In this document: positions 1 to 19,669 of the stretch, piece by piece
Numbering within the stretch: position 1 is the stretch's first letter
Layout: the number at the start of each line of letters is the position of its first letter
Origin: Bacteroidales bacterium
GTDB lineage: Bacteria; Bacteroidota; Bacteroidia; Bacteroidales; UBA932
Assembly: GCA_017934185.1 (NCBI GenBank)
Contig: JAGBJY010000023.1
Span: forward strand, 1-63,337
Length of the DNA: 63,337 bases
Reading direction: 5' to 3'
Notes under the pieces: model-generated
Database searches by the model: none
What the model was told of the DNA's origin: nothing
What the model saw: only the letters and a program-made list of their open reading frames with translations
Position numbers and translations under genes: made by a program

Positions 1-84
1 CTCCGGAAGGGAATGCACTTCCCTCCGCGTCGCTTCGCGACCCTGTCCGGGCAAATGCTCCGGGAAGCGCATTCCCTTCCGGAG
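1..84 (-). repeat. Variable-arm hairpin repeat (family R1), copy 1
   Basis: Two 23-nt arms (1-23 and 62-84, one mismatch) flank a 38-nt loop (24-61) identical to the loop of the copy inside truA at 19026-19105. The loop contains the small palindrome TCGCTTCGCGA. Read on the minus strand it is part of the DUF3127 open frame and encodes a peptide containing PGAFARTGSRSDAEG. The window edge cuts the element or its gene just beyond the left arm. Confidence 0.9.
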
Positions 85-379
85 CCGGCTCTGTCGTCTG
101 ACCGGCGGGGGCAATGCGCCAAATCTGAAGGTCGTTGTACCAGCGGCCGTTGTATTCGCGGCTTTTGAGGTTGAAGGAAACCTTGATGCGGTCTCCTACC
201 TGGTACTTGTCCATCTCGGCCACCTTGTCCTGCCCCCAGGCCGTGAAACAGGCCTGTGCGGTGAAGTTACCGTCCGGGTACTCCAGAATGAACTCCTGCT
301 TGGCCCAAGTGCCGCGGGCAGAAGTGCCGGACTGTACGCCTAATTTCTGGCGGAGCGTTCCTTCCAGTTCCAATGCCAT
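1..379 (-). CDS. DUF3127 domain protein, C-terminus cut by window edge
   Basis: The minus-strand frame begins MALELEGTLRQKLGVQSGTS at 379 and runs off the left edge with no stop. The pattern (QSGTSARGTWAKQEFILE, ACFTAWGQDKV, VGDRIKVSFNLKSREYNGRW) is that of DUF3127, a small OB-fold-like protein common in Bacteroidota and sometimes placed near single-stranded-DNA functions; its biochemical role is not established. The conserved domain ends near residue 90 (IWRIAP). From about residue 99 the frame enters the R1 hairpin repeat, so the tail is repeat-derived. It starts 4 nt after the FKBP stop codon and is probably co-transcribed with it. Family assignment is confident; function is not. Confidence 0.85.
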   Translation of the reverse strand, partial: MALELEGTLRQKLGVQSGTSARGTWAKQEFILEYPDGNFTAQACFTAWGQDKVAEMDKYQVGDRIKVSFNLKSREYNGRWYNDLQIWRIAPAGQTTEPAPEGNALPGAFARTGSRSDAEGSAFPSG

Positions 380-383
380 AAAC

Positions 384-1127
384 TTAGTTCTCCTTCTCTA
401 CAAAAGGACGTACCTCCAGGAGGTCCACGTCAAAGATAAGGGTGGAGTTGGTGCCGATGTTGCGGGGACCGCGCTGGCCATAAGCCAGTTCTGCAGGGAT
501 TACGAGGGTAATCTTACCGCCTTCGCCCACAAGCTTCATGCCCTCGGTCCAGCCGCGGATAACGCGGTTCAGAGGGAATTCGATGCCGTCGTTCTTGTCA
601 AACTCAGTGCCGTCGATGAGGGTACCGCGATAGTTCACCTTCACAGTGTCACGGTCGCTTACGGCGTGGTTCTCGTTACCGGAATCGGCAATGAGATAAA
701 CGATACCGCTGGCGGTGGAGTCGGCGCTGTTCTTCTCATAGAACTCCTTGCGGAACTTGTCACCTTTCTCCTTGTTCAGGGCGCCTTCATAAGCGGTGCG
801 CTTGCCCAGGAACTCATTGATAATCATGTTCATGTCGCTGGGGTCAATCTTGAACTGCTTTACAAAAGCGGAGTCCATGGGCTGGCCTTCCTTGGCGTTG
901 AGGGCATCGTTCAGACCCTTCTTGAGCTGAGCCATGTCAAGGTCGCCGAAGCCGTTCTGGGTAATGACCAGACCGAAATTGACACCCAGCAGGTAAGACA
1001 CGGTATCTACCTGACCATTTGTGGGAAGGAGACTCTGAACGGCCTTGGAACCTTCCACCTTGTTGTTGCCGCAAGCCACCATGAGAAGGGCGGCCGATGC
1101 GATGGCAATGTTTCTTAAAAGTTTCAT
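384..1127 (-). CDS. FKBP-type peptidyl-prolyl isomerase lipoprotein
   Basis: Catalyses cis-trans isomerisation of prolyl bonds and is likely a folding helper outside the cytoplasm. The N-terminus MKLLRNIAIASAALLMVACG is a lipoprotein signal with a Cys at the lipobox. Residues about 35-140 match the FKBP N-terminal dimerisation region (VSYLLGVNFG). The FKBP fold occupies the last 100 residues: YRGTLIDGTEFDKN, VIRGWTEGMKLVGEGGK, IPAELAYGQRG, STLIFDVDLLEV. At 247 residues it has FkpA/Mip architecture. I chose the ATG at 1127; an in-frame GTG lies two codons upstream. A TAnnTTTG box at 1205-1212 faces it, and DUF3127 follows after 4 nt. Confidence 0.93.
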   Translation of the reverse strand: MKLLRNIAIASAALLMVACGNNKVEGSKAVQSLLPTNGQVDTVSYLLGVNFGLVITQNGFGDLDMAQLKKGLNDALNAKEGQPMDSAFVKQFKIDPSDMNMIINEFLGKRTAYEGALNKEKGDKFRKEFYEKNSADSTASGIVYLIADSGNENHAVSDRDTVKVNYRGTLIDGTEFDKNDGIEFPLNRVIRGWTEGMKLVGEGGKITLVIPAELAYGQRGPRNIGTNSTLIFDVDLLEVRPFVEKEN

Positions 1128-1157
1128 ATACACTTGTTTTTAATGTTTTGGCTTTTG

Positions 1158-1188
1158 TCAAAAGGTCGCTTATGCGACGGCCTTTTTC
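1158..1188. repeat. Imperfect hairpin, possible fragment of R1 family
   Basis: AAAAGGTCGC, loop TTAT, and GCGACGGCCTTTT form a hairpin with a 3-nt bulge in the divergent FKBP/recQ spacer. TCGCTTATGCG plus CGGC also occurs at the right end of the R1-like copy at 40514-40594, so it may be a decayed relative. It lies 5' to both flanking genes, so a terminator role for either is unlikely. Confidence 0.4.
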
Positions 1189-1204
1189 CGAATCGTTCAA
1201 TCTG

Positions 1205-1212
1205 CAAAAATA
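1205..1212 (-). promoter_or_regulatory. TAnnTTTG -7 box for FKBP gene
   Basis: Minus-strand TATTTTTG fits the Bacteroides sigma-ABfr -7 consensus, 78 nt upstream of the FKBP ATG. The hairpin at 1158-1188 would lie in the 5' leader. Confidence 0.45.
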
Positions 1213-1335
1213 GTAATTTTTTTTTGCATTGCCTAAAATATCGGCCCGCCTTAAAAAATTATCACGCTTTAAGGCCGATAGATTTGGAAATGTCAGTGAT
1301 TTTCAGTATATTCACGGAAAACTATAGAAACTCTT

Positions 1336-3537
1336 ATGGCCTTAGATTCCTCCATCCTGCAAGACAAACTGAAGACTTTCTTCGGTTGGACCGCTTTCAA
1401 AGGAGACCAACTGGACATCATCCGCCATCTGACCGATGGCAAAAATGCCTTTGTGCTGATGCCCACAGGAGGAGGCAAATCCCTCTGCTACCAGCTTCCG
1501 GCGCTGGTTATGGAAGGGACAGCCATTGTCATATCTCCGCTGATAGCCCTCATGAAGAACCAGGTGGATGCCATCCGCGGCTTCGAAGCCGGAGACAGCG
1601 GCATTGCCCATTTCCTGAACTCGTCCCTGAGCCGCGCCCAAATCCAGGAAGTGCAGGAAGACTTGCTCAGGGGGGCTACCAAGCTGCTGTATGTGGCCCC
1701 GGAATCGCTTACCAAGGAAGAAAACATTGCCCTCCTGAAAGAAGTGAAGATTTCCTTCTACGCCGTGGACGAAGCCCACTGCATCTCAGAATGGGGCCAC
1801 GACTTCCGCCCGGAGTACCGGAAAATCCGTTCCATCATCGAGGAAATCCAGCCGGCCCCGGTCATTGCCCTTACGGCCACCGCCACCCCAAAGGTCCAGA
1901 GCGACATCCTCAAAAACCTGCACATCCAGGACGCCAAGGTGTTCAAGAGTTCCTTCAACCGTCCCAATCTATACTATGAGGTGCGGGACAAAGTGGAGCC
2001 GGAAAAAGACATCATCCGCTTCATCCGCCAGAATCCCGGCAAGAGCGGCATCATCTATTGCCTCAGCCGCAAAAAAGTGGAGGAACTGGCCCAGATGCTG
2101 GTCATCAACGGCATCAAGGCGCTCCCCTACCACGCCGGACTGGATGCCAAAACCCGCGCAGAGAATCAGGACAAGTTCCTGATGGAAGAAATTGATGTCA
2201 TCGTGGCCACCATTGCCTTCGGCATGGGCATTGACAAGCCGGATGTGCGCTTTGTCATCCACTACGACATTCCCAAGAGCATAGAGGGTTACTACCAGGA
2301 AACCGGCCGGGCGGGCCGTGACGGGCAGGAAGGCCAGTGCATCACCTATTACAGCTACAAGGACATCCAGAAACTGGAGAAATTCATGCAGGGGAAGCCG
2401 GTGGCAGAGCAGGAAATCGGCAAACAACTGCTAAAAGAAACCGTTGCCTACGCCGAATCCAGCCAGTGCCGCCGCAAACTGCTGCTCAATTACTTCGGAG
2501 AAGATTACCTGGCCGATAATTGCGGGGCCTGCGACAACTGCCTGCATCCCAAAGCGCGCTTTGACGGCCACGAGGAGCTTTGCATGGTCATTGAACTCAT
2601 TGAGTCCCTGCCGGAGCACTTCAAACTGGAGCATCTTTCCAGCATCCTTGCGGGTGTTACCAATGCCATCATCAAGTCTTACAACCACGACACGCTGCCG
2701 CTGTTCGGTGCCGGAAAAGACCACGACACCCGTTTTTGGTGCGCGGTCATCCATCAGGGCCTTATCCTGCATTATCTGGACAAAGACATTGAAAACTACG
2801 GACTTATCTTCGTCACAGAGGAGGGCCGGAAGTTCTACGAACACCCGCACGAAGTGATGCTGGTAGAAGACCGCACCTTCTCCGAAGGAGAGGACGAGGA
2901 CGAGGAGGACAGCCCTGCCGCCGTCCATGGCGGTGGCGGCGGAGACCCGGTGCTGCTGTCCATGCTCAAGGACCTCCGCAAGGACGTTGCCCGCAAACTG
3001 AAGCTCCAGCCCTGGGTTATCTTCTCGGATCCTTCCCTGGAAGACATGACCATCCTGTATCCCCTCACGCTCAAGGAACTCTCGGAGAAATGCCAGGGCG
3101 TGGGCGAAGGAAAAGCCCGGAAATTCGGTCAGGCTTTCGTAGACCTCATTGCCAAATACGTGGAGGAGAATGAGATAGAGCGACCCGACGACTTTGTGGT
3201 GAAGTCGGTGGCCCCGAGGAGCGGCAACAAAGTGTACATCATCCAGTCCATCGACCGGAAGCTGGACCTGAGGGACATTGCATCGGCCCGGAGCCTGGAA
3301 ATGGATGAGCTCCTGACGGAAATTGAGGCCATCGTTTCCAGCGGCACCAAAATCAACCTCAACTATTATATAGACGAGGAACTGGACCCCGAAGTGGTGG
3401 ACGAAATCTACGACTGGTTCAAGGAGGAAGCCACCTCCGATTCCCTGGAGGAAGCCATTCAAGCCTTGGGGGCCGATTACGAAGACCGGGAGATACGGCT
3501 GGTACGCATCAAGTTCTTAAGCGAAGTGGTGAATTGA
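1336..3537 (+). CDS. recQ: ATP-dependent DNA helicase RecQ
   Basis: A 3'-5' DNA helicase of recombination and fork repair. The 733 residues are full length. Helicase motifs run in order: Walker A PTGGGKS at 43-49, DEAHCISEWGHDFRPEY (motif II plus RecQ aromatic loop) near 144, ALTATATP, SFNRPNLYYE, YHAGLD, and VATIAFGMGIDKPDVR followed by YYQETGRAGRDG. The RecQ zinc site is visible as QCRR then CGACDNC near 395-420. A winged-helix region follows, then an HRDC-type domain and a C-terminal tail. An acidic stretch (SEGEDEDEED) plus a glycine run links helicase core and C-terminus. Transcribed away from the FKBP gene; no strong TAnnTTTG box was seen before its ATG. Confidence 0.97.
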   Translation: MALDSSILQDKLKTFFGWTAFKGDQLDIIRHLTDGKNAFVLMPTGGGKSLCYQLPALVMEGTAIVISPLIALMKNQVDAIRGFEAGDSGIAHFLNSSLSRAQIQEVQEDLLRGATKLLYVAPESLTKEENIALLKEVKISFYAVDEAHCISEWGHDFRPEYRKIRSIIEEIQPAPVIALTATATPKVQSDILKNLHIQDAKVFKSSFNRPNLYYEVRDKVEPEKDIIRFIRQNPGKSGIIYCLSRKKVEELAQMLVINGIKALPYHAGLDAKTRAENQDKFLMEEIDVIVATIAFGMGIDKPDVRFVIHYDIPKSIEGYYQETGRAGRDGQEGQCITYYSYKDIQKLEKFMQGKPVAEQEIGKQLLKETVAYAESSQCRRKLLLNYFGEDYLADNCGACDNCLHPKARFDGHEELCMVIELIESLPEHFKLEHLSSILAGVTNAIIKSYNHDTLPLFGAGKDHDTRFWCAVIHQGLILHYLDKDIENYGLIFVTEEGRKFYEHPHEVMLVEDRTFSEGEDEDEEDSPAAVHGGGGGDPVLLSMLKDLRKDVARKLKLQPWVIFSDPSLEDMTILYPLTLKELSEKCQGVGEGKARKFGQAFVDLIAKYVEENEIERPDDFVVKSVAPRSGNKVYIIQSIDRKLDLRDIASARSLEMDELLTEIEAIVSSGTKINLNYYIDEELDPEVVDEIYDWFKEEATSDSLEEAIQALGADYEDREIRLVRIKFLSEVVN

Positions 3538-3555
3538 CATTCATCACTTTTTTTG

Positions 3556-3563
3556 TACCTTTG
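3556..3563 (+). promoter_or_regulatory. TAnnTTTG -7 box (TACCTTTG)
   Basis: TACCTTTG lies 20 nt before the ATG of the small membrane protein heading the dnaG-metG run; a TTGACA-like stretch about 20 nt upstream could serve as the distal element. Confidence 0.6.
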
Positions 3564-3583
3564 TAAACTAATGTAGTGACGCT

Positions 3584-3862
3584 ATGAATCTGGCTTTTAA
3601 TAACAGGTGGATCCGTATTATCAAGGACGTGCTGTTTTTCGGCATCGCCATTTGGCTGGTAACGCGCAAATCCTGGCTTACGGTCTTTGCAGGGGTGCTG
3701 GCGGCCTACTGGTACGGCCGCGACGCCTATTACCAGCTCAAAGCCCTGTGGCAGGAAAAGACCTTCAAGCCGCAGGAGCCTGAGGAAACCCGGGAGAACA
3801 AGGCCCCCATTATCACCGAGAATCTCGCCGATGCCAAAGAAGTAGATTACGAGAAAGAATGA
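3584..3862 (+). CDS. Small membrane protein of unknown function preceding dnaG
   Basis: 92 residues. A basic N-terminus (NNRWIRIIKD) is followed by a hydrophobic region at about 14-45 (VLFFGIAIWLVTRKSWLTVFAGVLAAYW) that can form one or two short membrane segments, then a charged cytoplasmic-type tail rich in Glu and Lys. I recognise no domain. Its stop overlaps the dnaG start (ATGA at 3859-3862), so translation is probably coupled, and it has its own TACCTTTG box. No function can be inferred beyond co-expression with the primase. Confidence 0.75.
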   Translation: MNLAFNNRWIRIIKDVLFFGIAIWLVTRKSWLTVFAGVLAAYWYGRDAYYQLKALWQEKTFKPQEPEETRENKAPIITENLADAKEVDYEKE

Positions 3863-5838
3863 TTCCCAAGCAGACGGTAGACCTGATTCTGGACACCGCC
3901 CGCGTAGAAGAGGTGGTGGGAGACTTCGTGACGCTCAAGCGCCGCGGCGCCAGCTATGTGGCCTGCTGTCCCTTTCACAACGAGAGAACGCCTTCTTTCC
4001 ACGTAACGCCTTCCAAGGGCATCTACAAGTGTTTCGGCTGCGGAAAAGCCGGCAGCGCCGTGGGCTTCGTGATGGAGTACGAGCACATGACCTATCCGGA
4101 AGCCCTCCGATACCTGGCCCGCAAATACAACATAGAGGTAAAAGAAGAGGAGGAAACGGCCGAACAGATTGCCGCCCGTCAGCGCAGCGAAAGCCTGATG
4201 GCCGTGAGCGAGTTTGCGCGGCAGTTTTTCTGTAGTCAACTCAAGGACGGGGAGGGCAAAGCCGTGGGATACCGCTATTACCGGGAACGCAGCATCCAGG
4301 ATGCCACCATTCAGCAGTGGAGCCTGGGCTGGGCCCCCTCGGGAAAAAGCACCCTGGTAGATGCCGCCCGCGCCGCCGGTTACAAGGACGAGTATCTGGT
4401 AGATGCCGGCCTGGCCATCCGCCAGGAAGACGGAACGCTGATTGACAAGTTCCGCGAAAGGGTGATGTTCCCCATCCATTCGGTGAGCGGCCGTGTGATT
4501 GCCTTCAGCGGCAGAACCCTCAAGGCCGATAATCCCGCAAAGTATGTGAACTCGCCGGAAACGGAAATCTACATCAAGAGCCGCAACCTCCTGGGCATCT
4601 ACTTTGCCAAGACCGAGATATCCCGCCAGGACCGCTGCATCCTGGTGGAAGGCAATGTGGACGTGGTGATGATGCATCAGACGGGCATTACCAACGTGGT
4701 GGCCTCCTGCGGCACTTCGCTCACGGAAGAGCAGATTCGCCTGATCAAGAAGTTCACGGAGAACATTACCATCATGTACGACGGGGACAAGGCCGGCCTG
4801 CATGCCGCCATCCGCGCCATCGGCCTCATCCTGAAAGAGGGCATGAACCCGCGGGTGGTGTTCCTTCCGGACGGCGACGACCCCGATTCCTTCTCCCGCA
4901 AGCATACGCTGGATGAGGTGCAGGAATTCATCCGCACGCATGAGAAAGACGGAATCGGCTTCAAAACCGAGCTCCTCCTTGAGGAAGCCGGCGACGACCC
5001 GCTCAAAAAGGCCAATCTCATCAACGAGATTGCAGACACGGTGGCCGATATCCCCGATGCCATCAAGCGGCAGGTGTACGTGGAGACGGTGGCCAGGCAG
5101 TTTGGCATTGATGCCGATATTATTCAGGAGCGGGTACGGAAGACCCGGGAAAACATCCAACGCTCGGCCCGGAGGGATGATGCATTTTCCTCCGCAAAAA
5201 AAATGGCCGATGCGCCGGGAAATGAGCTTTCCCCCGGCGCTTCCCCCGCCTCATCCCCTACCCACCGTACCCTGGCTACCCGCGAGGAACAGATTCTGGA
5301 GCCGTCGGAGAAGGAGCTGCTGGGCTTTATCCTCCGCTACGGGCGTTCGCCGCTCCAGTTTGAGTCGGATTCGGAATTTTATGACCCGGAGGGGACGCAG
5401 ACGGTGGCGGAATTCATTGACGAGGCCCTGGCGGGGGATGACATTCATTTTGCCAATACAGCCTACGAGGCTTGCTACCAGGCCTATTTCGCCCTGTACG
5501 ACACGGGGCTGGAGCAGGATGCCATTGTGCTGGCCCTCCTGAACGGGGAAGACCGCACTGTGGCCGGCGTGGCCGGAGACCTTTCCACCCAGAAGTACGA
5601 ACTCACGGTGCACAACTTCTCCGAGGCCCTTACCACCACAGACTCGTGGCTGGTCACCTTCGTTCCCCGGGCCATCCTGGTCTACCACGACAAGCGCATC
5701 CAGGCGCAGCAGGCCGATATCCGCCGCCAGATGGCATCGGCCTCCTCCCCGGAAGAAACGGTGCAGCCGATGACCCGCCTGGGAAAACTCAACGAACTCA
5801 AAAAGACAATCAATATCAAACTTGGAAGATTGAAATGA
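3859..5838 (+). CDS. dnaG: DNA primase
   Basis: Synthesises RNA primers at the replication fork. The 659 residues begin with a CHC2 zinc-binding domain ([12 protein letters not shown] at 36-47, [15 protein letters not shown] near 57). The catalytic core contains the TOPRIM signature: [13 protein letters not shown] near 260 and [12 protein letters not shown] near 305, supplying the acidic metal-binding residues. A low-complexity Ser/Pro linker at about 445-475 precedes the helicase-binding C-terminus. The start overlaps the upstream stop (ATGA), and the stop overlaps the metG start, so all three genes form one tight transcription unit. Confidence 0.97.
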
Positions 5839-8009
5839 TGACTGAGCACAAAAGAACCCTTGTTACCTGCGCGCTTCCCTATGCCAACGGGCCTGTCCAT
5901 ATCGGCCATCTGGCGGGCGCATATATTCCCGGAGATATTTATGTCCGTTATCTGCGCATGCGCGGAGAAGATGTGGTTTTCATCTGCGGCAGCGATGAGC
6001 ACGGCGTTCCCATCACCATCAAAGCCAGAAAAGAGGGCGTGACGCCGCAGGATGTGGTGGACCGCTACCACAAGATAATGAAAGAGGCTTTCATCGGCCT
6101 GGGGATTAATTTTGATATTTATTCCCGCACTTCGTCGCAGGTGCATGCCCAAAACGCCTCCGAGTTTTTCCGCAAGCTCTACGACCAGGACGACTTCATC
6201 ACCCAGGAGAGTGAGCAGCTCTACGACGAGGAGGCCCGGATGTTCCTCACTGACAGGCTCATCGAGGGCACTTGCCCGCATTGCGGCAATCCGCGCGCCT
6301 ACGGCGACCAGTGCGAGAAATGCGGCCGGACCCTGAGCCCGGAGGAACTGCTGGACCCCAAATCCAAACTGAGCGGTTCCACGCCGGTGAAGAAGAAAAC
6401 CAAACACTGGTACCTGCCGCTGGACAAATACGAGCCCTGGCTCCGCGAGTGGATTCTGGAGCAGCACAAGGAGTGGAAAACCAATGTGTACGGCCAGTGC
6501 AAGAGCTGGCTGGACGGCGGCCTGCTGCCCCGTGCCGTGACCCGAGACCTGGAGTGGGGCGTTCCCGTGCCCGTAGAGGGGGCCGAAGGGAAGGTGCTGT
6601 ATGTGTGGTTTGACGCTCCCATCGGCTATATTTCCAACACCAAGGAATTGCTCCCCCAGAGCTGGGAGAAGTGGTGGAAAGACCCTCAGACGCGCCTGGT
6701 GCATTTCATTGGCAAGGACAACATTGTGTTCCACTGCATTGTATTCCCTTCCATGCTCAAGGCGCACGGCAGCTATGTACTGCCCGACAATGTGCCTTCC
6801 AACGAATTCCTGAACCTGGAAGGGGACAAGATTTCCACCTCCCGCGGCTGGGCCGTATGGGTGGACGAATATGAGAAGGATTTCCCCGGCGAGGAGGATG
6901 TGCTGCGGTATGTGCTCACCGCCAATGCCCCCGAAACCAAGGACAATGACTTTACCTGGAGGGATTTCCAGAGCCGCAACAACAGTGAGCTGGTGGCCGT
7001 TTTCGGGAATTTCGTGAACCGGGCCGTGGTGCTCACACACAAGTATTTCGGGGGCGCCGTGCCGGCCAACCTCAAACCGGAAGCCATTGACCGTGAGACG
7101 CTTGACTCCATCAAGCCCTGCCGCGAAGCCCTGGAGAAATACATCGAATCCTTCCATTTCCGCGAGGCCCTGAAGGAAGCCATGAACATGGCGCGCATCG
7201 GCAACAAGTACATCTCCGACATGGAGCCCTGGAAAGTGGCCAAGACGGATATGGACCGCACGGCCAGCATCCTGAACACCTGCCTGCAAATCTGCGCCAA
7301 CCTGGCCATTGCCTTTGAGCCGTTTACGCCTTTCAGCGCCGAGAAGCTGCGCAGCATCCTGCGCGTGGGCATAGACGCCGGCCGGGACTACCGCAAGGGC
7401 GAAGGCACTCCCACCGTAAACTTCTTCAAGGAGGACGAAGGCAAGGCTGTGCACACGAAACCCTCTACAGAAAGCCTCGTGCTGAACTGGGCGCAACTGG
7501 GCGCAGCAGAAATCCTGCCGGAAGGTCATGAGCTGGGCGAAGCCGTGCTGCTGTTCCGCAAGATAGAGGACACCGAAATTGAGGCCCAGATGGCAAAGCT
7601 GGAGGCCATCAAGGCCGCCCGTGAAGCCGAGGAAGCCGCCAGGGCCGCCGAAGAAGCCGCCAAGAAAGTGGAGCCACAGAAAGCCGAAGTCACTTTTGAG
7701 CAGTTTGGCGCCATGGACATCCGCACCGCCACCGTACTGGCCGCAGAGCGGGTTCCCAAAACCGATAAACTCCTGAAACTCACCATCGACATCGGCATAG
7801 ACCAGCGCACTATCGTCTCCGGCATTGCGCACTACTACAGCCCGGAAGACATGGTGGGGAAACAAATCTGCATCCTCGCCAACCTGGCGCCCCGCACCAT
7901 CCGCGGCATCGAGTCCAAGGGCATGATTCTCATGGCCAAGCAGGGCGACGGCAAAATGCGCCTGATCACGCCGCAGGAAGCGGCGACGAACGGCGCCATC
8001 ATCGGCTAA
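5835..8009 (+). CDS. metG: Methionyl-tRNA synthetase with C-terminal tRNA-binding domain
   Basis: Charges tRNA-Met. The class I HIGH motif is VHIGH in [14 protein letters not shown] near residue 20, and the KMSKS equivalent is KISTSRG near 335. Two CxxC knuckles ([11 protein letters not shown] and CEKCGR) at about 147-165 form the zinc site. The anticodon-binding helical region is followed by an Ala/Glu coiled linker ([20 protein letters not shown]) near 590-620 and an EMAP-II/Trbp111-like domain ([18 protein letters not shown] to the end). The protein has 724 residues. I chose the ATG at 5835, overlapping the dnaG stop; a second ATG follows at once. It ends 4 bp from the convergent SPFH gene. 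Confidence 0.96.
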
Positions 8010-8013
8010 ACTG

Positions 8014-12286: not shown

Positions 12287-13363
12287 ATGTCCAAAAAAGT
12301 GCATGTTTTCAATGCCGGTCCTTGCCTGCTGCCGCAGGTAGCCATCGACAACGCCATCGCCGCCCTGAAGGATTTCAGCGGCACCGGAATCTCCGTCTTG
12401 TCCATCAGCCACCGTACCAAGGAGTGGGACGCCGTGATGGATGAATGCCGCGCCTTGTGGCGTGAGCTCCTGAACATTCCGGACACCCATGAGGTTGTGT
12501 TCCTGGGAGGAGGCGCTTCCCTGCAGTTCCTCTATGTGGCCATGAACTACCTGGAGAAGAAGGCCGCCTATCTGGACACCGGCGTCTGGGCCCACAAAGC
12601 CCTCAAGGAAGCCCAGGGTATCGGCGAGGCCACGGCCATCGCCTCTTCCAAAGACAAGAACTACACCTACATCCCCAAGGGGTTTGAGATTCCCGCAGAC
12701 TTGGATTACCTGCACATTACCACCAACAACACCATCTACGGCACCGAAATCAAGGAAGACATGGACTGCCCCTGCCCGCTCATTGCCGACATGTCCTCCG
12801 ACATCATGTCCCGTCCCGTAGACGTCAGCAAGTACGACCTTATTTACGGTGGCGCCCAGAAGAACGTGGGCCCCGCCGGCGTTATCTTCGCCATCATCCG
12901 CAAGGAGTCACTGGGCCGCGTGAGCCGCTACATCCCCACCATGCTGGACTACCGCACCCACATTGACAAACTTTCCATGTTCAACACGCCTCCCGTCTTC
13001 AACATCTTCGTGATGAACGAGACCCTCAAGTGGATCAAGAGCATGGGCGGCGTAGCGGCCATCCAGAAGATCAATCAGAAGAAGGCCGACCTGCTTTACA
13101 GCGAGATTGACCGCAACAGCCTGTTCGTGGGTACCGCTGCCAAGGAAGACCGTTCGCTTATGAACGTGTGCTTTGTGATGGCGCCCGGCAAGGAAGACCT
13201 CCAGGACGAATTCTTTGCCTTTGCCAAGGAACGCGGCATGGTGGGCATCAAGGGCCACCGCAGCGTAGGCGGTTTCCGCGCCTCCCTGTACAATGCCTGC
13301 ACCGTGGAAGACGTCCAGGCCCTGGTAGACTGCATGCAAGAATTTGAAAACCTCAAGAAGTAA
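12287..13363 (+). CDS. serC: Phosphoserine aminotransferase
   Basis: Converts 3-phosphohydroxypyruvate plus glutamate to phosphoserine, the second step of serine synthesis. The 358 residues are typical. Visible signatures: [19 protein letters not shown] at the start, [37 protein letters not shown], the substrate loop [11 protein letters not shown], and the PLP-lysine region [13 protein letters not shown] (Lys near residue 190). The stop shares its last base with the start of serA, so the two are tightly coupled. Confidence 0.97.
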
Positions 13364-14283
13364 TGAAAGTTTTATTAGCCACCCAAAAGCCTTTTGCCGC
13401 CGCGGCGGTAAAAGGCATCACCGATATCCTGGAGGCCGCCGGCCATGAGGTAGCAAAGCTTGAAAAATATGCAGCGCAGGCCGATTTCGTTGCCGCCGTG
13501 GCCGATGCCGAGGCCCTTATCATCCGCTCCGACAAAGTGACGGAGGAAGTGATGGCCGCCGCCCCCAAACTGAAGATTGTGGTGCGTGCCGGCGCCGGCT
13601 TTGACAATGTGGACCTCGCCGCCGCCACCGCCCGCGGGATTGTGGTCATGAACACCCCCGGACAGAACTCCAACGCCGTGGCCGAACTGGCCCTGGGCCT
13701 CATGATTTTCATGGCCCGCACCCAGTTCACCCCTGCCACCGGTTCCGAGCTTCAGGGCAAGCGTCTGGGCGTCCAGGCCTACGGCAATGTGGGCCGCCTG
13801 GTGGGCCAGAAGGCCAAGGCCCTGGGCATGGAAATCTGCGCCCTGGACCCCTTCCTCACCGACGAGCAGATTGTCGCCGGCGGCGCCGCTCCCATCCACT
13901 CCGTGGAAGAGCTGTATGCTGCCTCCGACTACCTCTCCATCCACATCCCGGCCCTGCCTTCCACTATTAAGTCCATCGGCTATGAACTTATCACAAAAAT
14001 GCCCAAGGGGGCTACGCTGGTAAACACCGCCCGTAAGGAAGTCATTGACGAGGAAGGCCTGCTGAAGGCCCTGGAAGAGCGCGAAGACCTCAAATATGTC
14101 ACCGATGTGATGCCGGACAATTATGCCCTCCTGCAGGAGAAGTTCGGCGCCCGCGTATTCGCCACGCCCAAGAAGATGGGTGCCCAGACGGCCGAAGCCA
14201 ACGTGAACGCCGGCCTTGCCGCCGCCCGCCAGATTGTAGATTTCTTTGCTACCGGCAACCGTAAATTCCAAGTGAACAAGTAA
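13363..14283 (+). CDS. serA: D-3-phosphoglycerate dehydrogenase, short form
   Basis: Oxidises 3-phosphoglycerate, the first step of serine synthesis. 306 residues, without the ACT regulatory domain of longer SerA enzymes, so serine feedback through ACT is not expected. The N-terminal substrate domain ends near 100 (VVRAGAGFDNVDLAAATARG). The NAD Rossmann motif is GVQAYGNVGRLVGQKA near 130. NTARKEVIDEEGLLKAL and the following VTDVMPDN belong to the catalytic region. Lies between serC (1-bp overlap) and the DUF1015 gene (2-bp gap). Confidence 0.94.
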   Translation: MKVLLATQKPFAAAAVKGITDILEAAGHEVAKLEKYAAQADFVAAVADAEALIIRSDKVTEEVMAAAPKLKIVVRAGAGFDNVDLAAATARGIVVMNTPGQNSNAVAELALGLMIFMARTQFTPATGSELQGKRLGVQAYGNVGRLVGQKAKALGMEICALDPFLTDEQIVAGGAAPIHSVEELYAASDYLSIHIPALPSTIKSIGYELITKMPKGATLVNTARKEVIDEEGLLKALEEREDLKYVTDVMPDNYALLQEKFGARVFATPKKMGAQTAEANVNAGLAAARQIVDFFATGNRKFQVNK

Positions 14284-14285
14284 TT

Positions 14286-15548
14286 ATGGTACGAGTAAAA
14301 CCCTTTGCGGCCATTCGCCCGCCCAAAGACCTGGTAACGGAAGTTGCCGCCCCCCCGTATGATGTCCTGAACAGCGAGGAAGCCCTGGCCATGGCCGGTG
14401 AAAAGAGCCTCCTGCACATCACCAAGCCCGAAATTGACTTCAGCCCCATTGCCGGGGAGCATGAGCAGCGCACCTATGACCGGGCCGTTGCCAACTTCAA
14501 GGCCTGGAAGGAAAAAGGCTGGCTGGTGCAGGATGAGAAAGAGAAATACTATGTGTACGCCCAGACCATGGGTAAGCGTACGCAGTACGGTCTGGTCCTG
14601 TGCGCCCATACGGACGACTATGCCTCCGGCGTTATCAAGAAGCATGAGCTCACCCGCAAGGACAAGGAAGACGACCGCATGGTGCATGTACGCATCCAGA
14701 ACGCCAACATCGAGCCGGTCTTCTTTGCCTACAAAGACAACGAGGAGCTCAACGCCATTGTGGCCAAGGCCGCTGCCGGCAAGCCTGAATACAAGTTTGT
14801 GGACGAGAACAAGTTCACCCACACCTTCTGGGTCATTGACGACGACGCCACCATTGCCCGCATCACGGAAATCTTCACCCACGACATTGATGCCTTTTAT
14901 GTGGCCGATGGTCACCACCGCACCGCCGCTGCCGCCCGCGTGGGCGCAGAAAAGAAGGAGCAGAATCCTGCCCACACCGGGAACGAGGAGTACAACTTCT
15001 TCATGGCCGTGTGCTTCCCCGAGAGCCACCTTGCCATCATTGACTACAACCGTGTGGTCAAAGACCTGAACGGTCTCACGGAGCAGGAACTCCTGAAGGC
15101 CCTGGAAGAGGACTTTGAGGTTACGCTTGCCACTAAACCGCGCTGCGGCCGTCCTGCCAAACCGTACAGCCCCACAGGCTTACACAACTTCTCCATGTAC
15201 CTGGGCAAGAACTGGTACAGCCTCACCGCCAAGCCCGGCCGCTACGACGATGCCGACCCTATTGGCGTACTGGATGTCACCGTCCTTTCCAATCTTGTAC
15301 TGGATAAGCTGCTGGGCATCAAGGACCTGCGCACCGACAAGCGCATTGACTTCGTGGGCGGCATCAGAGGCCTTGGAGAACTGGCCCGCCGCGTAGATTC
15401 CGGAGAAATGAAAGTAGCCTTTGCCCTCTATCCGGTGTCCATGGAGCAGCTCATCCGCATTGCCGATACCGGCAACATCATGCCTCCCAAGACCACCTGG
15501 TTCGAGCCCAAGCTCCGCAGCGGTTTAGCCATCCACAGCCTGCAATAG
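14286..15548 (+). CDS. DUF1015 family protein of the serine operon
   Basis: 420 residues beginning MVRVKPFAAIRPPKDLVTEV, with APPYDVLNSEEA, the family hallmark YVADGHHRTAAAARVG near 205, and DFVGGIRGLGELARRVDSG near 355. DUF1015 proteins repeatedly follow serA/serC in Bacteroidales and Clostridia. Their reaction is unproven, though kinase-like roles acting on serine have been proposed for related proteins. It starts 2 bp after serA. Its last 24 bp overlap the 3' end of the opposing TrmH-type gene. No serB is visible in this window. Confidence 0.88.
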   Translation: MVRVKPFAAIRPPKDLVTEVAAPPYDVLNSEEALAMAGEKSLLHITKPEIDFSPIAGEHEQRTYDRAVANFKAWKEKGWLVQDEKEKYYVYAQTMGKRTQYGLVLCAHTDDYASGVIKKHELTRKDKEDDRMVHVRIQNANIEPVFFAYKDNEELNAIVAKAAAGKPEYKFVDENKFTHTFWVIDDDATIARITEIFTHDIDAFYVADGHHRTAAAARVGAEKKEQNPAHTGNEEYNFFMAVCFPESHLAIIDYNRVVKDLNGLTEQELLKALEEDFEVTLATKPRCGRPAKPYSPTGLHNFSMYLGKNWYSLTAKPGRYDDADPIGVLDVTVLSNLVLDKLLGIKDLRTDKRIDFVGGIRGLGELARRVDSGEMKVAFALYPVSMEQLIRIADTGNIMPPKTTWFEPKLRSGLAIHSLQ

Positions 15549-16064
15549 GCCCCACAGCACCACGCCCACGCTTACGGAAACGTTGAGCGAGTGCTTGGTA
15601 CCCTGTTGGGGTATCTCCAAAGCAAAGTTGGCGGCGTCCACAACCGATTGTTGGACGCCGTCAACTTCGTTTCCGAAGATAAGGGCGTACTTCCCTCCGG
15701 GCGTGCGGCGGAAAGCATCCAGCTTCACGGAATGAACGGTCTGTTCCACGGCAATGACGGTGTAGCCATCGGCCCGGAGGCGGTGGACCAGGGCCACCAC
15801 ATCGGCCACGTGTTCGGAGGGAACCACTTCTTCGGCGCCCAGGGCTACTTTGCGCAGCTCCGGAGAGGGTGGGACGGGGCAGATGCCGCCAAGATAGATT
15901 TTGTCTACGCCGAAGGCATCGGCCGTACGGAAGGCCGAGCCTACGTTGTGGGCGCTGCGCACATTGTCCAGCACCAGCACGATGCCGGAAGAAGGACGCT
16001 CCGTGATATACTGCTCCGGAGTAAGGCGTCCCAGTTCAATATTGAGAAGTTTTCTGTCTTTCAC
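15525..16064 (-). CDS. TrmH/SpoU-family RNA 2'-O-methyltransferase
   Basis: SPOUT-fold methyltransferase of tRNA or rRNA ribose. Motif 1 is [20 protein letters not shown], motif 2 [11 protein letters not shown], and motif 3 [21 protein letters not shown], which together form the trefoil knot binding S-adenosylmethionine. I set the start at the GTG at 16064 ([11 protein letters not shown]): a TACCTTTG box at 16069-16076 ends 4 nt before it, and the longer ATG at 16112 would lie upstream of that promoter. That gives 179 residues. Its 3' end overlaps the DUF1015 gene by 24 bp. The exact RNA target cannot be told. Confidence 0.9.
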
Positions 16065-16068
16065 ACTG

Positions 16069-16076
16069 CAAAGGTA
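16069..16076 (-). promoter_or_regulatory. TAnnTTTG -7 box deciding a GTG start
   Basis: Minus-strand TACCTTTG ends 4 nt before the GTG at 16064, implying a leaderless mRNA for the TrmH-type gene. The opposing glyA box starts 12 nt away. Confidence 0.6.
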
Positions 16077-16088
16077 AGAGAAATTATT

Positions 16089-16096
16089 TATCTTTG
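16089..16096 (+). promoter_or_regulatory. TAnnTTTG -7 box for glyA
   Basis: TATCTTTG lies 28 nt before the glyA ATG and is back to back with the promoter of the TrmH-type gene. Confidence 0.65.
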
Positions 16097-16124
16097 TAGA
16101 ATAGAATACCATCTAACCACATAT

Positions 16125-17468
16125 ATGAAAAAAGACACTCAGCTTTTTGATTTGATCAAGAAGGAACAGGAGCGGCAGAGCGCCGGCCTGGAACTCATTG
16201 CTTCCGAGAATTATGTAACGGACGAAGTGCTCGCCGCCATGGGCTCCGTCTGCACCAACAAATACGCCGAGGGCTACCCCGGCAAACGCTATTACGGCGG
16301 CTGCGAGGTGGTGGACCAGATTGAGCAGCTGGCCATCGACCGCCTGTGTGCCCTGTATGACGCCGAATATGCCAATGTCCAGCCGCACTCCGGCGCCCAG
16401 GCCAATATGGCCGTGACCATGGCCATCCTCAGGCCCGGCGACACCTTCATGGGACTGGACCTGTCCATGGGCGGTCACCTCACCCACGGCTCGCCCGTGA
16501 ATGCTTCCGGCATCCTCTACCATCCCGTAGCGTATGGCCTCAATCCTGAAACCGGGCGCGTAGACTACGACGAGATGGAGCGCAAGGCCCTGGAATGCAA
16601 GCCCAAGCTCATTATCGGCGGTGCATCGGCCTACTCCCGCGAATGGGACTATGAGCGCATGAGGGCCATCGCCGACAAAGTGGGCGCCATCCTCTGGATT
16701 GACATGGCCCACACCGCCGGCCTCATTGCCGCCGGGCTCCTCAAAAATCCCGTCAAATATGCGCACATCGTCACTTCCACCACCCACAAGACCCTGCGCG
16801 GACCGCGCGGCGGCATTATCCTGATGGGCAAGGACTTTGACAACCCCTGGGGCCTCACCACCCCTAAGGGCGAGGTGAAGAAGATGAGCGCCATCCTCAA
16901 TTCCAGCGTCTTCCCTGGCATCCAGGGCGGTCCGCTGGAGCATGTGATTGCGGCCAAGGCCGTTGCCTTCTGGGAGGCGGACCAGCCGGAATACAGGGAG
17001 TATCAGCAGCAGGTGGTCTGCAATGCCGCGGCCCTGTGCCGGGCTTTTGTGGACAGCGGCTACAAGATTATCTCCGGCGGCACTGACAACCACCTCATGC
17101 TCATTGACTTACGCACCAAATTCCCCAACCTGAGCGGCCGCGTGGCAGAGAAGGAACTGGTAAGGGCCGATATCACGGTGAACAAGAACATGGTGCCCTT
17201 CGACATCCGCAGCGCCTTTGCCACCTCCGGCCTTCGCGTGGGCACCCCGGCCATCACTTCCCGCGGCTTTGAGGAGAAGGACATGGCAGAAATCGCCGAT
17301 CTCATTGACACGGTGCTCGCATCGGCCCATACCCACGTGGACGCCCTGACCGCCAAGGAGCCCACCGAGGCCCAGCTGGCCGAACGCATTGCCCATAAAC
17401 TGGTCCTGGACGAAGTCCGGCGCAAAGTACACGCCATGACTTCCGACCGTCCCCTCAACCGTTATTAG
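16125..17468 (+). CDS. glyA: Serine hydroxymethyltransferase
   Basis: Converts serine and tetrahydrofolate to glycine and methylene-tetrahydrofolate, the main source of one-carbon units. 447 residues from [18 protein letters not shown]. Signatures: [61 protein letters not shown], and the PLP-lysine segment [16 protein letters not shown] (Lys near 230). The C-terminal domain is intact. It follows the serC-serA operon in the same direction with its own promoter, so serine synthesis and use are adjacent but separately controlled. Confidence 0.97.
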
Positions 17469-17471
17469 CTT

Positions 17472-18797
17472 ATGAAACGAACCCTCCTCTTTGCGGCCAG
17501 CCTGGCCCTGATGCTTGCCTGCCAGCCCGCGCAGCAACCCGGCACTACGCCCCTGAAACCCCCGACCACGCCCACGACGCCCTCCACCCCGGAAGGCAAC
17601 GTCTCCGTAACCGTTACCACCCTGGACGCCAACTCCGTTACCGACGCCTCCGCTACGCTCAGCGGCAGTTATACCGGAGCTCCGGCAGGCGGTGTGTACG
17701 ACCGCGGCGTGTACTTTGGCACCTCGGCCGGCAGCCTCACCAAGGAAACCGGCCTGAACAGCAGCACGGCCACTTCCGGCAGCTTCAGCGTGGTGCTCAC
17801 GGAACTGAGCGCGGAAACCACCTACTATTACAAAGCCTACGTAACCGTCCTGGATGCCTCTGCCAATACCTACGTAGAGTTCACCGGCCAGGTCAAGAGT
17901 TTCACCACCAAGGCCCTCACCACCGGCACCACCCTCCTGGGTTATCACCAGGGTTACGAGGTGCCTGCCATTGCCTTCCTGGATGGAACGGGGCAGTGGG
18001 AATCCGGTCAGGAAACACCGGCACAGAACAACAGTGGCAGTTTTATTGGTGAAAACCAGGACAACGTATGGTTCAAGAGCTACACTACCAACGACAAGCA
18101 GGTGGTAGTCACCCATACCTTCCAATCCGGCGGAAAACGCGTCCGCAACTGGACGGGGCTCATTGACAAAGACAAGCAGGGCCCGCTCTGGATTGCCTTT
18201 GTGATGCATGGCGGTCTCTATCCCAGAAACAGTGTAGGCCGCTATGACCGCTGGACCCAGGATCCGGCCGTTCCCGGGGACTGGCAGCGGAGCCTGGCCA
18301 GTTCTACCCACAGCCGCGGCCACTTTGTGGCTTCCGACTACCGTCAGAACAGCGTTGACGCCAACTCACAGACCTTCTATTACACCAACCAGGCGCTACA
18401 GTGGCAGAACGGCTTCAACAGCGGTATCTGGAGTTCCCTGGAAAGCGCCGTAGTAAGCAATACTCCCAGCGGGAGCGATTCTCTTTATGTTGTAGTGGGC
18501 GTTTTGTACGAGAATCCCAACAACTACCAGACCCCCAACTCCGGCGGAGCACAGGTGCTGGCGCCCAGCCATTTCTACAAACTGCTCATGAAGTGCAGCT
18601 TTGGCAGCAACGGCACCATGACGGCCGCCAAGGGATGCGCCTACTTATTTGAGAATAAGAGCTATAGCGGCTCTGCCTACAGCAGCTATATCACCAGCAT
18701 TGACGCCGTAGAGCAGCGCGCCGGCTTTGACTTCTTTGCCAACGTGCCCAAGTCCCTGCAAGACGCCGCCGAGGCGCAGACCAGCGCCATCTGGTAA
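17472..18797 (+). CDS. Secreted DNA/RNA non-specific endonuclease lipoprotein
   Basis: 441 residues. The N-terminus MKRTLLFAASLALMLACQ ends in a lipobox Cys and is followed by a Pro/Thr linker. Residues about 45-140 look like a fibronectin-type sandwich (RGVYFGTSAGSLTKE, LSAETTYYYKAYVT). The C-terminal 270 residues carry the NUC1/EndoG-type core: HSRGHFVASDYRQN holds the catalytic His, and NSQTFYYTNQALQWQNGFN the metal-binding Asn region. The usual Asp before RGH is Ser here. Likely surface-anchored for nucleic-acid scavenging. Starts 3 bp after glyA and may be read through from it. Confidence 0.8.
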   Translation: MKRTLLFAASLALMLACQPAQQPGTTPLKPPTTPTTPSTPEGNVSVTVTTLDANSVTDASATLSGSYTGAPAGGVYDRGVYFGTSAGSLTKETGLNSSTATSGSFSVVLTELSAETTYYYKAYVTVLDASANTYVEFTGQVKSFTTKALTTGTTLLGYHQGYEVPAIAFLDGTGQWESGQETPAQNNSGSFIGENQDNVWFKSYTTNDKQVVVTHTFQSGGKRVRNWTGLIDKDKQGPLWIAFVMHGGLYPRNSVGRYDRWTQDPAVPGDWQRSLASSTHSRGHFVASDYRQNSVDANSQTFYYTNQALQWQNGFNSGIWSSLESAVVSNTPSGSDSLYVVVGVLYENPNNYQTPNSGGAQVLAPSHFYKLLMKCSFGSNGTMTAAKGCAYLFENKSYSGSAYSSYITSIDAVEQRAGFDFFANVPKSLQDAAEAQTSAIW

Positions 18798-18823
18798 AAT
18801 CTGGAGGGATCGACGGCAAGAAA

Positions 18824-19669
18824 TCAGTATCGCACGGCGTTCAGGAACAGCGCATGGCCGGGAACGGACTCACCGGCATCGGAGCGGGTTCCGGAGGCGA
18901 TGAGTTGTGCGATCCACTCCGGACTGTGCTTGCCGCGGCCCACTTCTATGAGCGACCCCACGGTGGCGCGCACCATGTTCCTGAGGAAACGGTCGGCCGC
19001 TATGCGGAAGTACCAATAATCACCACCGGAAGGAAGGGCCTGTCCCTCCGCGTCGCTTCGCGACCCTGTCCGGGCAAATGCTCCGGGACAGGCCCTTCCT
19101 TCCGGCTCCCGCATCACGGAAAGATGACTGGGCGTATAGGGTGCCCAAAAGGCGTCGTAGACCGTGCAGATGGAGGTTTTGTTGTCGCCGCCGGTCTTTT
19201 CAAAGCAGGAAAAGTCGTGGGTGCCCAGGAGGTACTGACAGGCCCGGTTCATGGCGTCAAAATCCAGGCCCGGATAGCCGCAAAGCCAGGAATAGCCCCT
19301 GACAAAAGGGTCTTTCACCCTGTGAATGAAGTAGGTATACTCGCGGCGCGTGGCGCTGAAGCGGGAGTGCATATCATCGGCCACCGGAAAGACCGAATGA
19401 ACGGCCACGCTGCGGGGTAGGATGGCATTTAATTTGTAGGTAAAGTCGGATGCCTCGAAGGGAAGCGGAGCGTCCGTGTCAAAGTGGGCTATATAGCCCG
19501 CGGCATGTACCCCGGTATCGGTGCGGCCGGCACCGGTAATGGCCACAGGATGGCCCAGCAGACGGGAAAGGGCTGCTTCCACACTGGCTTGCACGGAGGG
19601 AGAATGAGGCTGGATTTGCCAGCCGCAGAACTCAGCTCCGTCATAAGAGAGGCATAGGAAATAACGCAT
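18824..19669 (-). CDS. truA: tRNA pseudouridine(38-40) synthase TruA with in-frame repeat insertion
   Basis: Isomerises uridines 38-40 in tRNA anticodon arms. The catalytic Asp is in GAGRTDTGVHAAGY near 52, and FSATRREYTYFIH and HDFSCFEKTGGDNKTSICTV follow the family order, as does YWYFRIAADRFLRNMVRATV. Between the strands ending SHLSVMRE and GDYWYF lies an extra peptide of about 27 residues (about 189-215) made entirely by the R1 hairpin repeat (19026-19105). The frame is kept open on both sides, so the enzyme is probably still made. The ATG at 19669 was chosen; a TACATTTG box ends 6 nt upstream. Confidence 0.94.
   Translation of the reverse strand: MRYFLCLSYDGAEFCGWQIQPHSPSVQASVEAALSRLLGHPVAITGAGRTDTGVHAAGYIAHFDTDAPLPFEASDFTYKLNAILPRSVAVHSVFPVADDMHSRFSATRREYTYFIHRVKDPFVRGYSWLCGYPGLDFDAMNRACQYLLGTHDFSCFEKTGGDNKTSICTVYDAFWAPYTPSHLSVMREPEGRACPGAFARTGSRSDAEGQALPSGGDYWYFRIAADRFLRNMVRATVGSLIEVGRGKHSPEWIAQLIASGTRSDAGESVPGHALFLNAVRY
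19026..19105 (-). repeat. Variable-arm hairpin repeat (family R1), copy 2, inside truA
   Basis: Perfect 21-nt arms (19026-19046 and 19085-19105) flank a 38-nt loop (19047-19084) identical to the loop of copy 1 at 24-61. The arms differ from copy 1 after the shared CCGGAAGG yet still pair perfectly with each other. It lies in the same orientation relative to its host gene, and in the same frame, as copy 1. Confidence 0.95.

What the first reader, a model, noticed from the sequence alone, without database searches (positions are those of the whole stretch)
1..19105. Hairpin repeat inserted in frame in two unrelated genes, encoding the same peptide
Copies at 1-84 (DUF3127 gene tail) and 19026-19105 (inside truA) are in the same orientation and the same reading frame of their host genes and both give PGAFARTGSRSDAEG. 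In truA it adds about 27 residues between two conserved segments with no loss of frame (80 bp plus 1 bp of context). This resembles the Rickettsia palindromic elements that insert in coding sequences, but in a Bacteroidota genome. Frame and strand are read directly from the sequence; selection for a tolerated peptide is inference.
Basis: partly seen in the sequence, partly recalled or inferred. Interest (0 to 1): 0.85.

Follow-up and report, generated by a model that had tools for sequence, protein, structure and literature searches.

The report
Two-way hairpin inserts in bacterial genes
A gut bacterium and some of its relatives carry small DNA hairpins inside ordinary protein genes; the fixed centre of the hairpin seems to be turned round in place during evolution and gives a tolerable linker peptide in either direction.

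Summary
Window 1-84 and 19026-19105 share an identical 38-nt core between unlike but self-complementary arms, read in the same frame of DUF3127 and truA. The genome has 19 such copies; 38 of 330 genus genomes searched have matches. I compared 143 copies.

(1) Core and arms follow different rules: within genomes cores differ by 2%, arms by 45%, yet arms pair (all 19 own-genome copies: 15-18 of 18 positions). (2) In genes the core starts at codon position 1 in 95 of 98 copies, in BOTH orientations, giving SASLRDPVRANAP- or GAFARTGSRSDAE-type peptides. (3) 20 of 25 sites shared between species hold both orientations; flipped pairs have more similar arms than different sites do, some nearly identical. 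So the loop probably inverts in place.

Likely cause, inferred: template switching across the hairpin, which inverts a loop and equalises arms. What inserts the element is unknown; 18 REP-transposase loci examined are not flanked by it. The truA loop also receives other palindrome families. It works like Rickettsia palindromic elements but fails some defining features: a new variant of a known kind.

The parts
1..84 (+). Class A hairpin element, copy 1 (at the contig end), in the 3' tail of the DUF3127 gene
24..61 (+). 38-nt constant core of copy 1 (minus orientation relative to its host gene)
2..379 (-). Host gene of copy 1, DUF3127 protein (PF11325 over residues 4-89); 3' end not in the contig
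19026..19105 (+). Class A hairpin element, copy 2, inside truA
19026..19046 (+). Private left arm of copy 2 (21 nt, perfectly complementary to 19085-19105)
19047..19084 (+). 38-nt constant core of copy 2; in TruA it reads GAFARTGSRSDAE
19085..19105 (+). Private right arm of copy 2
18824..19678 (-). Host gene truA (tRNA pseudouridine synthase A); the listed TTG start is followed by an ATG at the fourth codon
40514..40594 (+). Class B relative: variant core in terminator-like private arms (GAAAAACAAGCCGCCGCA ... TGCGGCGGCTTGTTTTTC); its place between genes is my reading, not tested

Best explanation
A family of small non-autonomous hairpin elements (54-102 bp as measured, median 82) has spread through part of a genus of gut Bacteroidales and is kept mostly where it lies in frame in a tolerant protein loop, linker or tail. 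Each copy is a constant 38-nt core between two private arms that pair with each other. In genes the core begins at codon position 1 in either orientation, so the protein gains a peptide of the type SASLRDPVRANAP or GAFARTGSRSDAE flanked by arm-coded, E/G/D/S/P-rich residues. After insertion, replication switches template across the hairpin: one arm is recopied from the other, so mutations come to sit in both arms, and the core between them is inverted without change of length or frame. The core is held nearly invariant by a nucleotide-level constraint that does not depend on coding direction, most simply recognition by an unknown trans-acting factor that also moves the element. Shown: family, anatomy, in-frame use, phase bias, covariation, opposite orientations at shared sites, with near-identical private arms in the best cases. 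Inferred: in-place inversion as the event, template switching as its cause, protein-level selection for the phase, recognition of the core, mobility.
For: 19 class A copies in the genome; 143 compared copies from 38 genomes (genomes joined by equal contig lengths). Within-genome divergence: core 2.1%, left arm 45% (488 pairs). Paired arm positions: 15-18 of 18 in all 19 own-genome copies; 93.1% over the 143, against 52.4% when arms of different copies are combined (the 143 were chosen for having arms, so 93.1% is biased upward). Core pairs covary: positions 8/16 C-G in 106 and T-A in 36 of 143; positions 4/35 G-C in 130 and A-T in 11 of 143. In-frame copies: 95 of 98 in phase 0, 57 plus and 41 minus; before the arm filter 107 of 113. 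Same-site pairs of different genomes: 61 of 121 opposite; mean arm similarity of the opposite pairs 0.655, against 0.518 for different sites. Opposite pairs by flank amino-acid identity: 1 of 11 (>=95%), 3 of 12, 15 of 19, 20 of 42, 21 of 33. Examples: metG loci L026 (minus) and L073/L266 (plus) share CGGCAGGAGAAGACTCCTGC, which in the fetched loci occurs exactly only at this site; L161/L325 with 98% identical flanks. A second family in truA does the same: L184 against L170/L172/L185, same arms over 27 bp or so, core inverted. Coordinated arm changes exceed single-arm changes in the four lower identity bins (531 to 151), not in the closest bin (8 to 15). The core is more conserved than flanking coding DNA in 121 of 121 same-site pairs. 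Template switching is reported to equalise arms and invert spacers (PMC8604942, PMC8794818; passages).
Against: No strain-level or read-level flip was seen; all comparisons are between species. Reported template-switch inversions have short spacers (2-5 substitutions in yeast genes, loops up to 7-8 nt in rRNA), far below 38 nt. The rise of orientation differences with divergence is suggestive only (110 of 2000 permutations reach it). Of 61 opposite pairs only 7 exceed the 99th percentile of arm similarity, so some shared sites may be separate insertions. Pairs within a site are not independent. About seven copies with a class A core have poor arms (L082, L121, L158, L292, L303, L337, L344) and were dropped by the arm filter, so arms are not always kept. 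No mobilising enzyme was found, and target duplications were not measured. 41 of the 143 copies were not scored as in frame (another 4 were too near an end), though the crude score also misses truA itself.
Confidence: 0.68

Rival explanations
1. No inversion: the element enters a limited set of tolerant loops again and again, in random orientation, and same-site copies are independent.
For: The truA loop holds several unrelated palindrome families in different species; most matches shown at truA and at the prephenate dehydrogenase site break at the insert; the median opposite same-site pair has arm similarity of only 0.67.
Against: Some flipped pairs share private arms beyond what is seen between sites (4 of 61 reach or exceed the maximum of 2162 different-site opposite pairs, 7 exceed the 99th percentile); arms are more alike at the same site in 67 of 86 genome pairs; the closest relatives mostly agree in orientation (10 of 11 and 9 of 12 pairs).
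Confidence: 0.15
2. A dedicated recombinase inverts the core as a miniature phase-variable inverton.
For: Constant core, inverted-repeat borders and both orientations are what an inverton shows; gut Bacteroidia have invertons linked to invertases (PMC11892184, passages).
Against: The borders (arms) differ between sites, whereas a recombinase would be expected to need a constant site; 38 bp is very short for two duplex crossover sites to synapse (general knowledge); another core in truA inverts too. No recombinase gene was searched for.
Confidence: 0.1
3. Core homing: the core is repeatedly replaced in existing hairpins by copies from elsewhere, in random orientation.
For: Cores follow the genome more than the site (same genome 0.9-1.0 differences, same site 2.0-2.5, neither 3.1 per 38 nt); classes B and C hold the core in quite other arms.
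Against: In close relatives with two core types (G422, G508, G511) the core is much more alike at the same site than between sites (0-0.25 against 1.3-1.6 differences), and the flipped pair L161/L325 there has identical cores; in the 85-90% bin 15 flipped pairs differ less in the core than 4 unflipped ones (0.87 against 2.25).
Confidence: 0.1
4. The elements are REP/BIME-type repeats moved by a RAYT (TnpA-REP) transposase.
For: Y1_Tnp matches are common in the genus (23 of 30 genomes); TnpA-REP subclass 2.4 has REPs inserted in frame in its own gene (PMC6006769, passage).
Against: 18 distinct Y1_Tnp loci were checked (one below the curated cut-off): several have other hairpins nearby, none is flanked by this core; the only cores in these stretches lie 3.5 and 4.3 kb away in cysS-like and polA genes. 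Y1_Tnp occurs in 11 of 13 genomes with and 12 of 17 without the element. The GTAG/CGTC foot was not looked for systematically.
Confidence: 0.07
5. Assembly artefact: perfect arms let a short-k assembler write the loop in either direction.
For: The named genomes are mostly titled as metagenome assemblies and the own genome is a 62-contig draft; arms of 20-30 bp can equal small k-mers.
Against: Elements of about 80 nt are spanned by ordinary reads; an artefact would flip the closest pairs as often as distant ones, but 1 of 11 pairs at >=95% identity differ; arm covariation and phase bias are untouched.
Confidence: 0.05

Closest known systems
Rickettsia palindromic elements (RPE) and Wolbachia palindromic elements
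   Same: Dispersed palindromes inserted in frame in unrelated conserved genes, several families, possible hot sites (PMC2229807, PMC10969869, PMC3767692; passages only).
   Different: Other phylum; 54-102 bp instead of about 100-150; only the core is constant while arms are private; both orientations in one codon phase; arms mostly stay paired, whereas RPEs are said to lose repeat identity over time (PMC6649704, passage).
Template-switch arm homogenisation and spacer inversion in short inverted repeats
   Same: Arms equalised, spacer inverted, also inside coding DNA (PMC8604942, PMC8794818; passages).
   Different: Those events concern loops of a few nucleotides in sequences not described there as mobile; here a repeat family with a 38-nt loop is affected at many sites and gives a tolerated peptide both ways.
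Hairpin-associated small inversions of chloroplast DNA
   Same: Loop flips between paired stems (search listing only; Kelchner and Wendel 1996 is recalled).
   Different: Mostly non-coding and not a mobile family (recalled).
Coding palindromes of nematomorph mitochondria
   Same: Perfect palindromes kept inside protein genes, template switching proposed (PMC6649704, passages and start of abstract).
   Different: No constant core mentioned in what I saw; animal mitochondria.
Intragenic invertons of gut bacteria
   Same: Invertible DNA within genes (Chanin et al. 2024, seen only as a reference line in PMC11892184).
   Different: Recombinase-driven and longer (recalled); not a repeat family inside housekeeping genes (recalled).

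Membership tests
Rickettsia palindromic elements | In-frame insertion in unrelated protein genes | tested here: met
   98 of 143 copies scored in frame; hosts include truB, rsmH, polA, a formyltransferase and miaA, and truA by direct reading
Rickettsia palindromic elements | Length about 100-150 bp | tested here: not met
   54-102 bp, median 82, in the 143 copies
Rickettsia palindromic elements | Host in Rickettsia or Wolbachia | tested here: not met
   all 80 titles listed are Bacteroidales or Bacteroidia assemblies (Ca. Cacconaster)
Rickettsia palindromic elements | Sequence relation to RPE families | not tested
   no RPE sequences were compared
Rickettsia palindromic elements | Palindrome arms decay with age | tested here: inconclusive
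   all 19 own-genome copies keep 15-18 of 18 pairs although arms differ by 45% within genomes, but about seven class A cores elsewhere have poor arms
REP/RAYT (TnpA-REP) repeats | Cognate RAYT gene flanked by the repeat | tested here: not met
   0 of 18 distinct Y1_Tnp loci; not every Y1_Tnp gene of these genomes was checked
MITE (classical) | Constant terminal inverted repeats shared with a transposon | tested here: not met
   arms are private: 134 different 18-nt left arms in 143 copies; no parent transposon was searched for
MITE (classical) | Target-site duplication | not tested
   no systematic comparison of empty and filled sites at base level was made
Template-switch inverted repeat | Coordinated changes in both arms | tested here: met
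   539 coordinated against 166 single-arm changes in the five bins of same-site pairs, but 8 against 15 in the closest bin
Template-switch inverted repeat | Inversion of the spacer | tested here: met
   61 of 121 same-site pairs opposite, arms conserved in the best pairs; the event is inferred, not observed
Phase-variable inverton | Both orientations in one strain, recombinase dependent | not testable with these tools
   one genome per species only, no reads
Known structured RNA (Rfam) | Match at the gathering score | tested here: not met
   0 matches in window, L003, L005, L011, L020

The most novel reading that the evidence does not exclude
The core is a genuinely ambidextrous coding cassette: flips happen often enough to keep both peptide isoforms in a population for a score of housekeeping proteins at once (TruA, TruB, RsmH, PolA, formyltransferase, MetRS and others). 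Its sequence is held by a lineage-specific trans-acting factor that recognises it as a folded DNA hairpin and drives insertion, making a programmed, genome-wide protein-loop variation system without constant recombination sites.
Probability: 0.15. Interest if true: 0.93.

Novelty: new variant of a known kind. Interest (0 to 1): 0.78.

Why it matters
It extends in-frame palindromic insertion to a Bacteroidota genus and adds a separable anatomy: a fixed loop, private co-evolving arms, and both loop directions coding. Natural replicates (25 shared sites, 38 genomes) make the role of template switching in building and keeping hairpins directly testable, and the unknown mobiliser becomes a defined target. 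It also warns that covarying stems, usually read as proof of RNA function, can occur where both orientations are used at the same site, so that no single RNA is conserved there.

Tried and rejected
RAYT mobilisation: Y1_Tnp genes are frequent but not linked to the core in the loci checked. Known RNA family: no Rfam match. Viral carriage: no exact hit in IMG/VR; the pattern carried the extra base of the window's class B core and would miss class A, so I repeated it with the pattern and again found none. mRNA-level function of a fixed hairpin: unlikely for class A because both orientations occur at the same sites. Strict core homing and pure hot-spot insertion: see rivals. That is absence from these searches of an open-access library, not proof of absence in print. 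Structure prediction of TruA with the insert was not possible.

Rows dropped before counts: of 205 distinct pattern matches, 143 were kept as class A (arms of at least 8 directly beside the core, core beginning TCC or TCT). The 62 dropped are 26 class B, 19 class C, 4 of a GGAGC form, 4 others and 9 with a class A-like core, most of them with displaced, poor or cut arms. Of the 15 dropped copies that scored in frame, 12 were in phase 0. 4 of the 143 were too near an end to score. The first, looser scoring gave 61 of 135 in frame. Copies are counted singly although 83 of 98 lie in 25 shared sites.
Full report
OBSERVATION. The two hairpins are in the window as described. Their 38-nt cores are identical, their arms are not, and each arm pairs with its partner. 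On the minus strand both give PGAFARTGSRSDAEG in the host frame. The hosts are DUF3127 (PF11325) and TruA (PF01416). The first copy lies in a tail that the contig end cuts off.

FAMILY. A 32-nt core pattern with up to 3 mismatches has 20 places in the own genome, against 0 for the reversed control; the full class A pattern has 19. Among relatives, 4 of 61 genomes, 15 of 299 family-wide genomes in 2 of 25 genera and 38 of 330 genus genomes have matches, each count including the own genome. No exact match was found in IMG/VR. The genus of the window itself is not named by any search.

ANATOMY. Class A is arm - TCCRCGTYGCTTYGCRACCCWRTMCGGGNAWATGYTYC - arm'. Class B has the same centre with CCTGT...ATGGTC borders, and class C has a second covarying inner stem such as GGGCGC/GCGCCC; both sit in other arms. 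Four or more T in the last eight bases of the right arm, terminator-like, is seen in 4 of 76 class A, 5 of 22 B and 6 of 13 C copies with arms. Class A copies were scored in frame in genes in 51 of 79 cases, class B in 3 of 28 and class C in 2 of 14; a further 14 copies fitted none of the sorting rules, and some in-frame calls of B and C are short frames of doubtful meaning. In 143 class A copies from 38 genomes there are 42 different cores but 134 different 18-nt left arms; within genomes cores differ by 2.1% and arms by 45%. In the own genome the 171 pairs of 19 copies differ on average by 0.21 of 38 core and 7.57 of 18 arm positions, and each copy keeps 15-18 of 18 arm pairs. Over the 143 copies 93.1% of arm positions pair, against 52.4% for mixed arms. 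The 143 were chosen for having arms: about seven further class A cores with poor arms exist. Two core pairs covary: positions 8/16 (one exception in 143) and 4/35 (two exceptions). In 463 kb of the own genome, window included, 10 of 17 strong hairpins hold this core.

CODING. By a codon score of the flanks, 98 of the 143 copies lie in frame in a gene; 95 of the 98 begin the core at codon position 1; of the 98, 57 are in plus and 41 in minus orientation. Without the arm filter it is 107 of 113. Counting sites instead of copies it is 38 of 40: 25 shared sites and 15 singles, the exceptions being L074/L316 and L262. All six readings of the consensus element are free of stops; phase 0 has no cysteine and at most one aromatic residue, the others two or three aromatics. 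I read the phase bias as selection at the protein level, by inference. The crude score fails on some true cases, truA among them. Hosts with Pfam matches include, in the own genome, DUF3127, TruA, TruB, RsmH (MraW), a pterin-binding enzyme, NAD-dependent DNA ligase, prephenate dehydrogenase, a 4Fe-4S protein, DNA polymerase I, a formyltransferase, CitG, a radical SAM protein and an IPP transferase (MiaA), and elsewhere methionyl- and cysteinyl-tRNA synthetases, an M16 peptidase, alpha-2-macroglobulin, a ketoacyl synthase and a Mur ligase. In DNA polymerase I the core (residue 305) lies between the 5'-3' exonuclease (to 273) and the next domain match (from 396).

EMPTY SITES AND OTHER FAMILIES. 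TruA was found in 120 of 120 genomes, with a break at the insert in most rows shown. 30 loci were fetched and 26 read through an anchor motif. One of the 30, the own, has class A (L189 ends before the site). The same loop elsewhere holds nothing of note, an arm-like hairpin without core (L168), GTCATTCCCGGCTTGACCGGGAATC or GTCATTTCGAGCGAAGTCGAGAAATC repeats, or a larger family here called T2 with GGCCCCTCCC blocks (nine loci, a tenth flagged by pattern). Relative to E. coli TruA the stretch falls between query residues 165 and 219, outside both aligned parts. At the prephenate dehydrogenase site 104 of 120 genomes have a match, some weak; of 30 loci scanned by pattern 4 have class A, and of 8 printed five hold no such insert (G005, G356, G404, G415, G368), two hold class A and one another palindromic stretch.

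INVERSION. 83 of the 98 in-frame copies fall into 25 sites shared between species; 20 of the 25 show both orientations. Of 121 same-site pairs from different genomes 61 are opposite. Their arms, compared in gene direction, match at 0.655 on average, against 0.518 (sd 0.127) for 2162 different-site opposite pairs; 7 of the 61 exceed the 99th percentile and 4 reach or exceed the maximum. In 86 genome pairs arms are more alike at the same site in 67 and less in 19 (Wilcoxon 5e-9), while the core gains little from being at the same site (2.54 against 2.73 differences, p 0.012; genome pairs are not independent). Opposite pairs rise from 1 of 11 at >=95% flank identity through 3 of 12 and 15 of 19 to 20 of 42 and 21 of 33; a permutation within sites gives 110 of 2000, so the trend alone is weak. 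The strongest cases keep a private arm while the core is reversed: the metG site (L026 against L073 and L266; the exact arm occurs in the fetched loci only there), L161/L325 with 98% flanks, L335/L340 and, less closely, L115/L314. L144/L165 have arms identical over the 18 positions compared, but of a common kind. At truA, T2 copies L170, L172, L185 and L184 share their arms over about 27 bp, with the core reversed in L184 (alignment score 82 reversed, 19 forward, against L185). So inversion is not tied to one core.

ARMS AND CORE OVER TIME. Between same-site copies arm changes are mostly coordinated and still paired: 41:14, 86:18, 216:73 and 188:46 coordinated to single in the four lower identity bins. 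In the closest bin single changes lead (8:15), as would be expected if a change first hits one arm and is copied later. The core is more conserved than flanking coding DNA in 121 of 121 pairs, the arms in only 35; at mean flank identity 0.742 the core is 0.920 and the arms 0.633. Since the core is read in both directions, ordinary codon selection is an unlikely cause; a nucleotide-level constraint is inferred.

MECHANISM. Template switching across a hairpin copies one arm from the other and can invert the spacer. Both outcomes are reported in yeast genes (PMC8604942) and rRNA (PMC8794818), read as passages. It explains private paired arms and flips together, without a recombinase and for unrelated cores. 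It does not explain insertion, nor the fixed core, for which I infer a trans-acting factor. RAYT transposases were the obvious candidate and are not supported: 11 of 13 genomes with and 12 of 17 without the element have Y1_Tnp matches, and 0 of 18 distinct loci are flanked by the core.

COMPARISON. Rickettsia palindromic elements are the nearest in behaviour (passages). REPs inserted in frame in tnpA-REP genes are known (PMC6006769, passage). In eight searches of the paper library I saw no title or abstract beginning that describes this family.

VERDICT. Real, well supported as a family and as an in-frame insert; in-place loop inversion likely; cause inferred. New variant of a known kind.

Noticed in passing
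window 31961-32024; L230:12506-12570; L229:12863-12936: A second constant-loop, private-arm hairpin type: a loop close to ATYGGCCTTTTTWTAA (either strand; in L229 only its first part inside a longer loop) in three unrelated perfect or near-perfect arms.
   Followed up: partly
L167, L170, L172, L176, L183, L184, L185, L190, L194 (truA loop of other species): Family T2 with GGCCCCTCCC blocks, private arms, both orientations, in frame in truA; L184 has a longer core than L170/L172/L185, apparently from an expanded inner hairpin.
   Followed up: partly
L168 (G019 truA loop): A hairpin resembling one arm without any core, GCTCCGGAGGGTGGAGGGATACTCCCTTCCTCCGGAGC, at the insertion site; a possible remnant or precursor.
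   Followed up: no
L171, L173, L174, L175, L177, L178: Short repeats of the GTCATTCCCGGCTTGACCGGGAATC or GTCATTTCGAGCGAAGTCGAGAAATC kind, whole or in part, in frame in the same truA loop; GTCATTCTGAGCG also lies beside class A copies in L003 and L005.
   Followed up: no
L198 / L206 (G000:C39): A Y1_Tnp (RAYT-like) gene between two hairpins with AAAAACAGTAAGCAA, a REPtron-like arrangement unrelated to the core; a further such hairpin at L241:4843.
   Followed up: partly
host genes of class A: Many hosts act on tRNA or translation (TruA, TruB, MiaA, RsmH, formyltransferase, MetRS, CysRS); not tested against the gene background.
   Followed up: no
class A arms, e.g. L010, L026: Single arms are themselves near-palindromes (GGAGAGGCTTCTCC, GGAGAAGACTCC), so three small hairpins could form instead of one long one; read by eye.
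   Followed up: no
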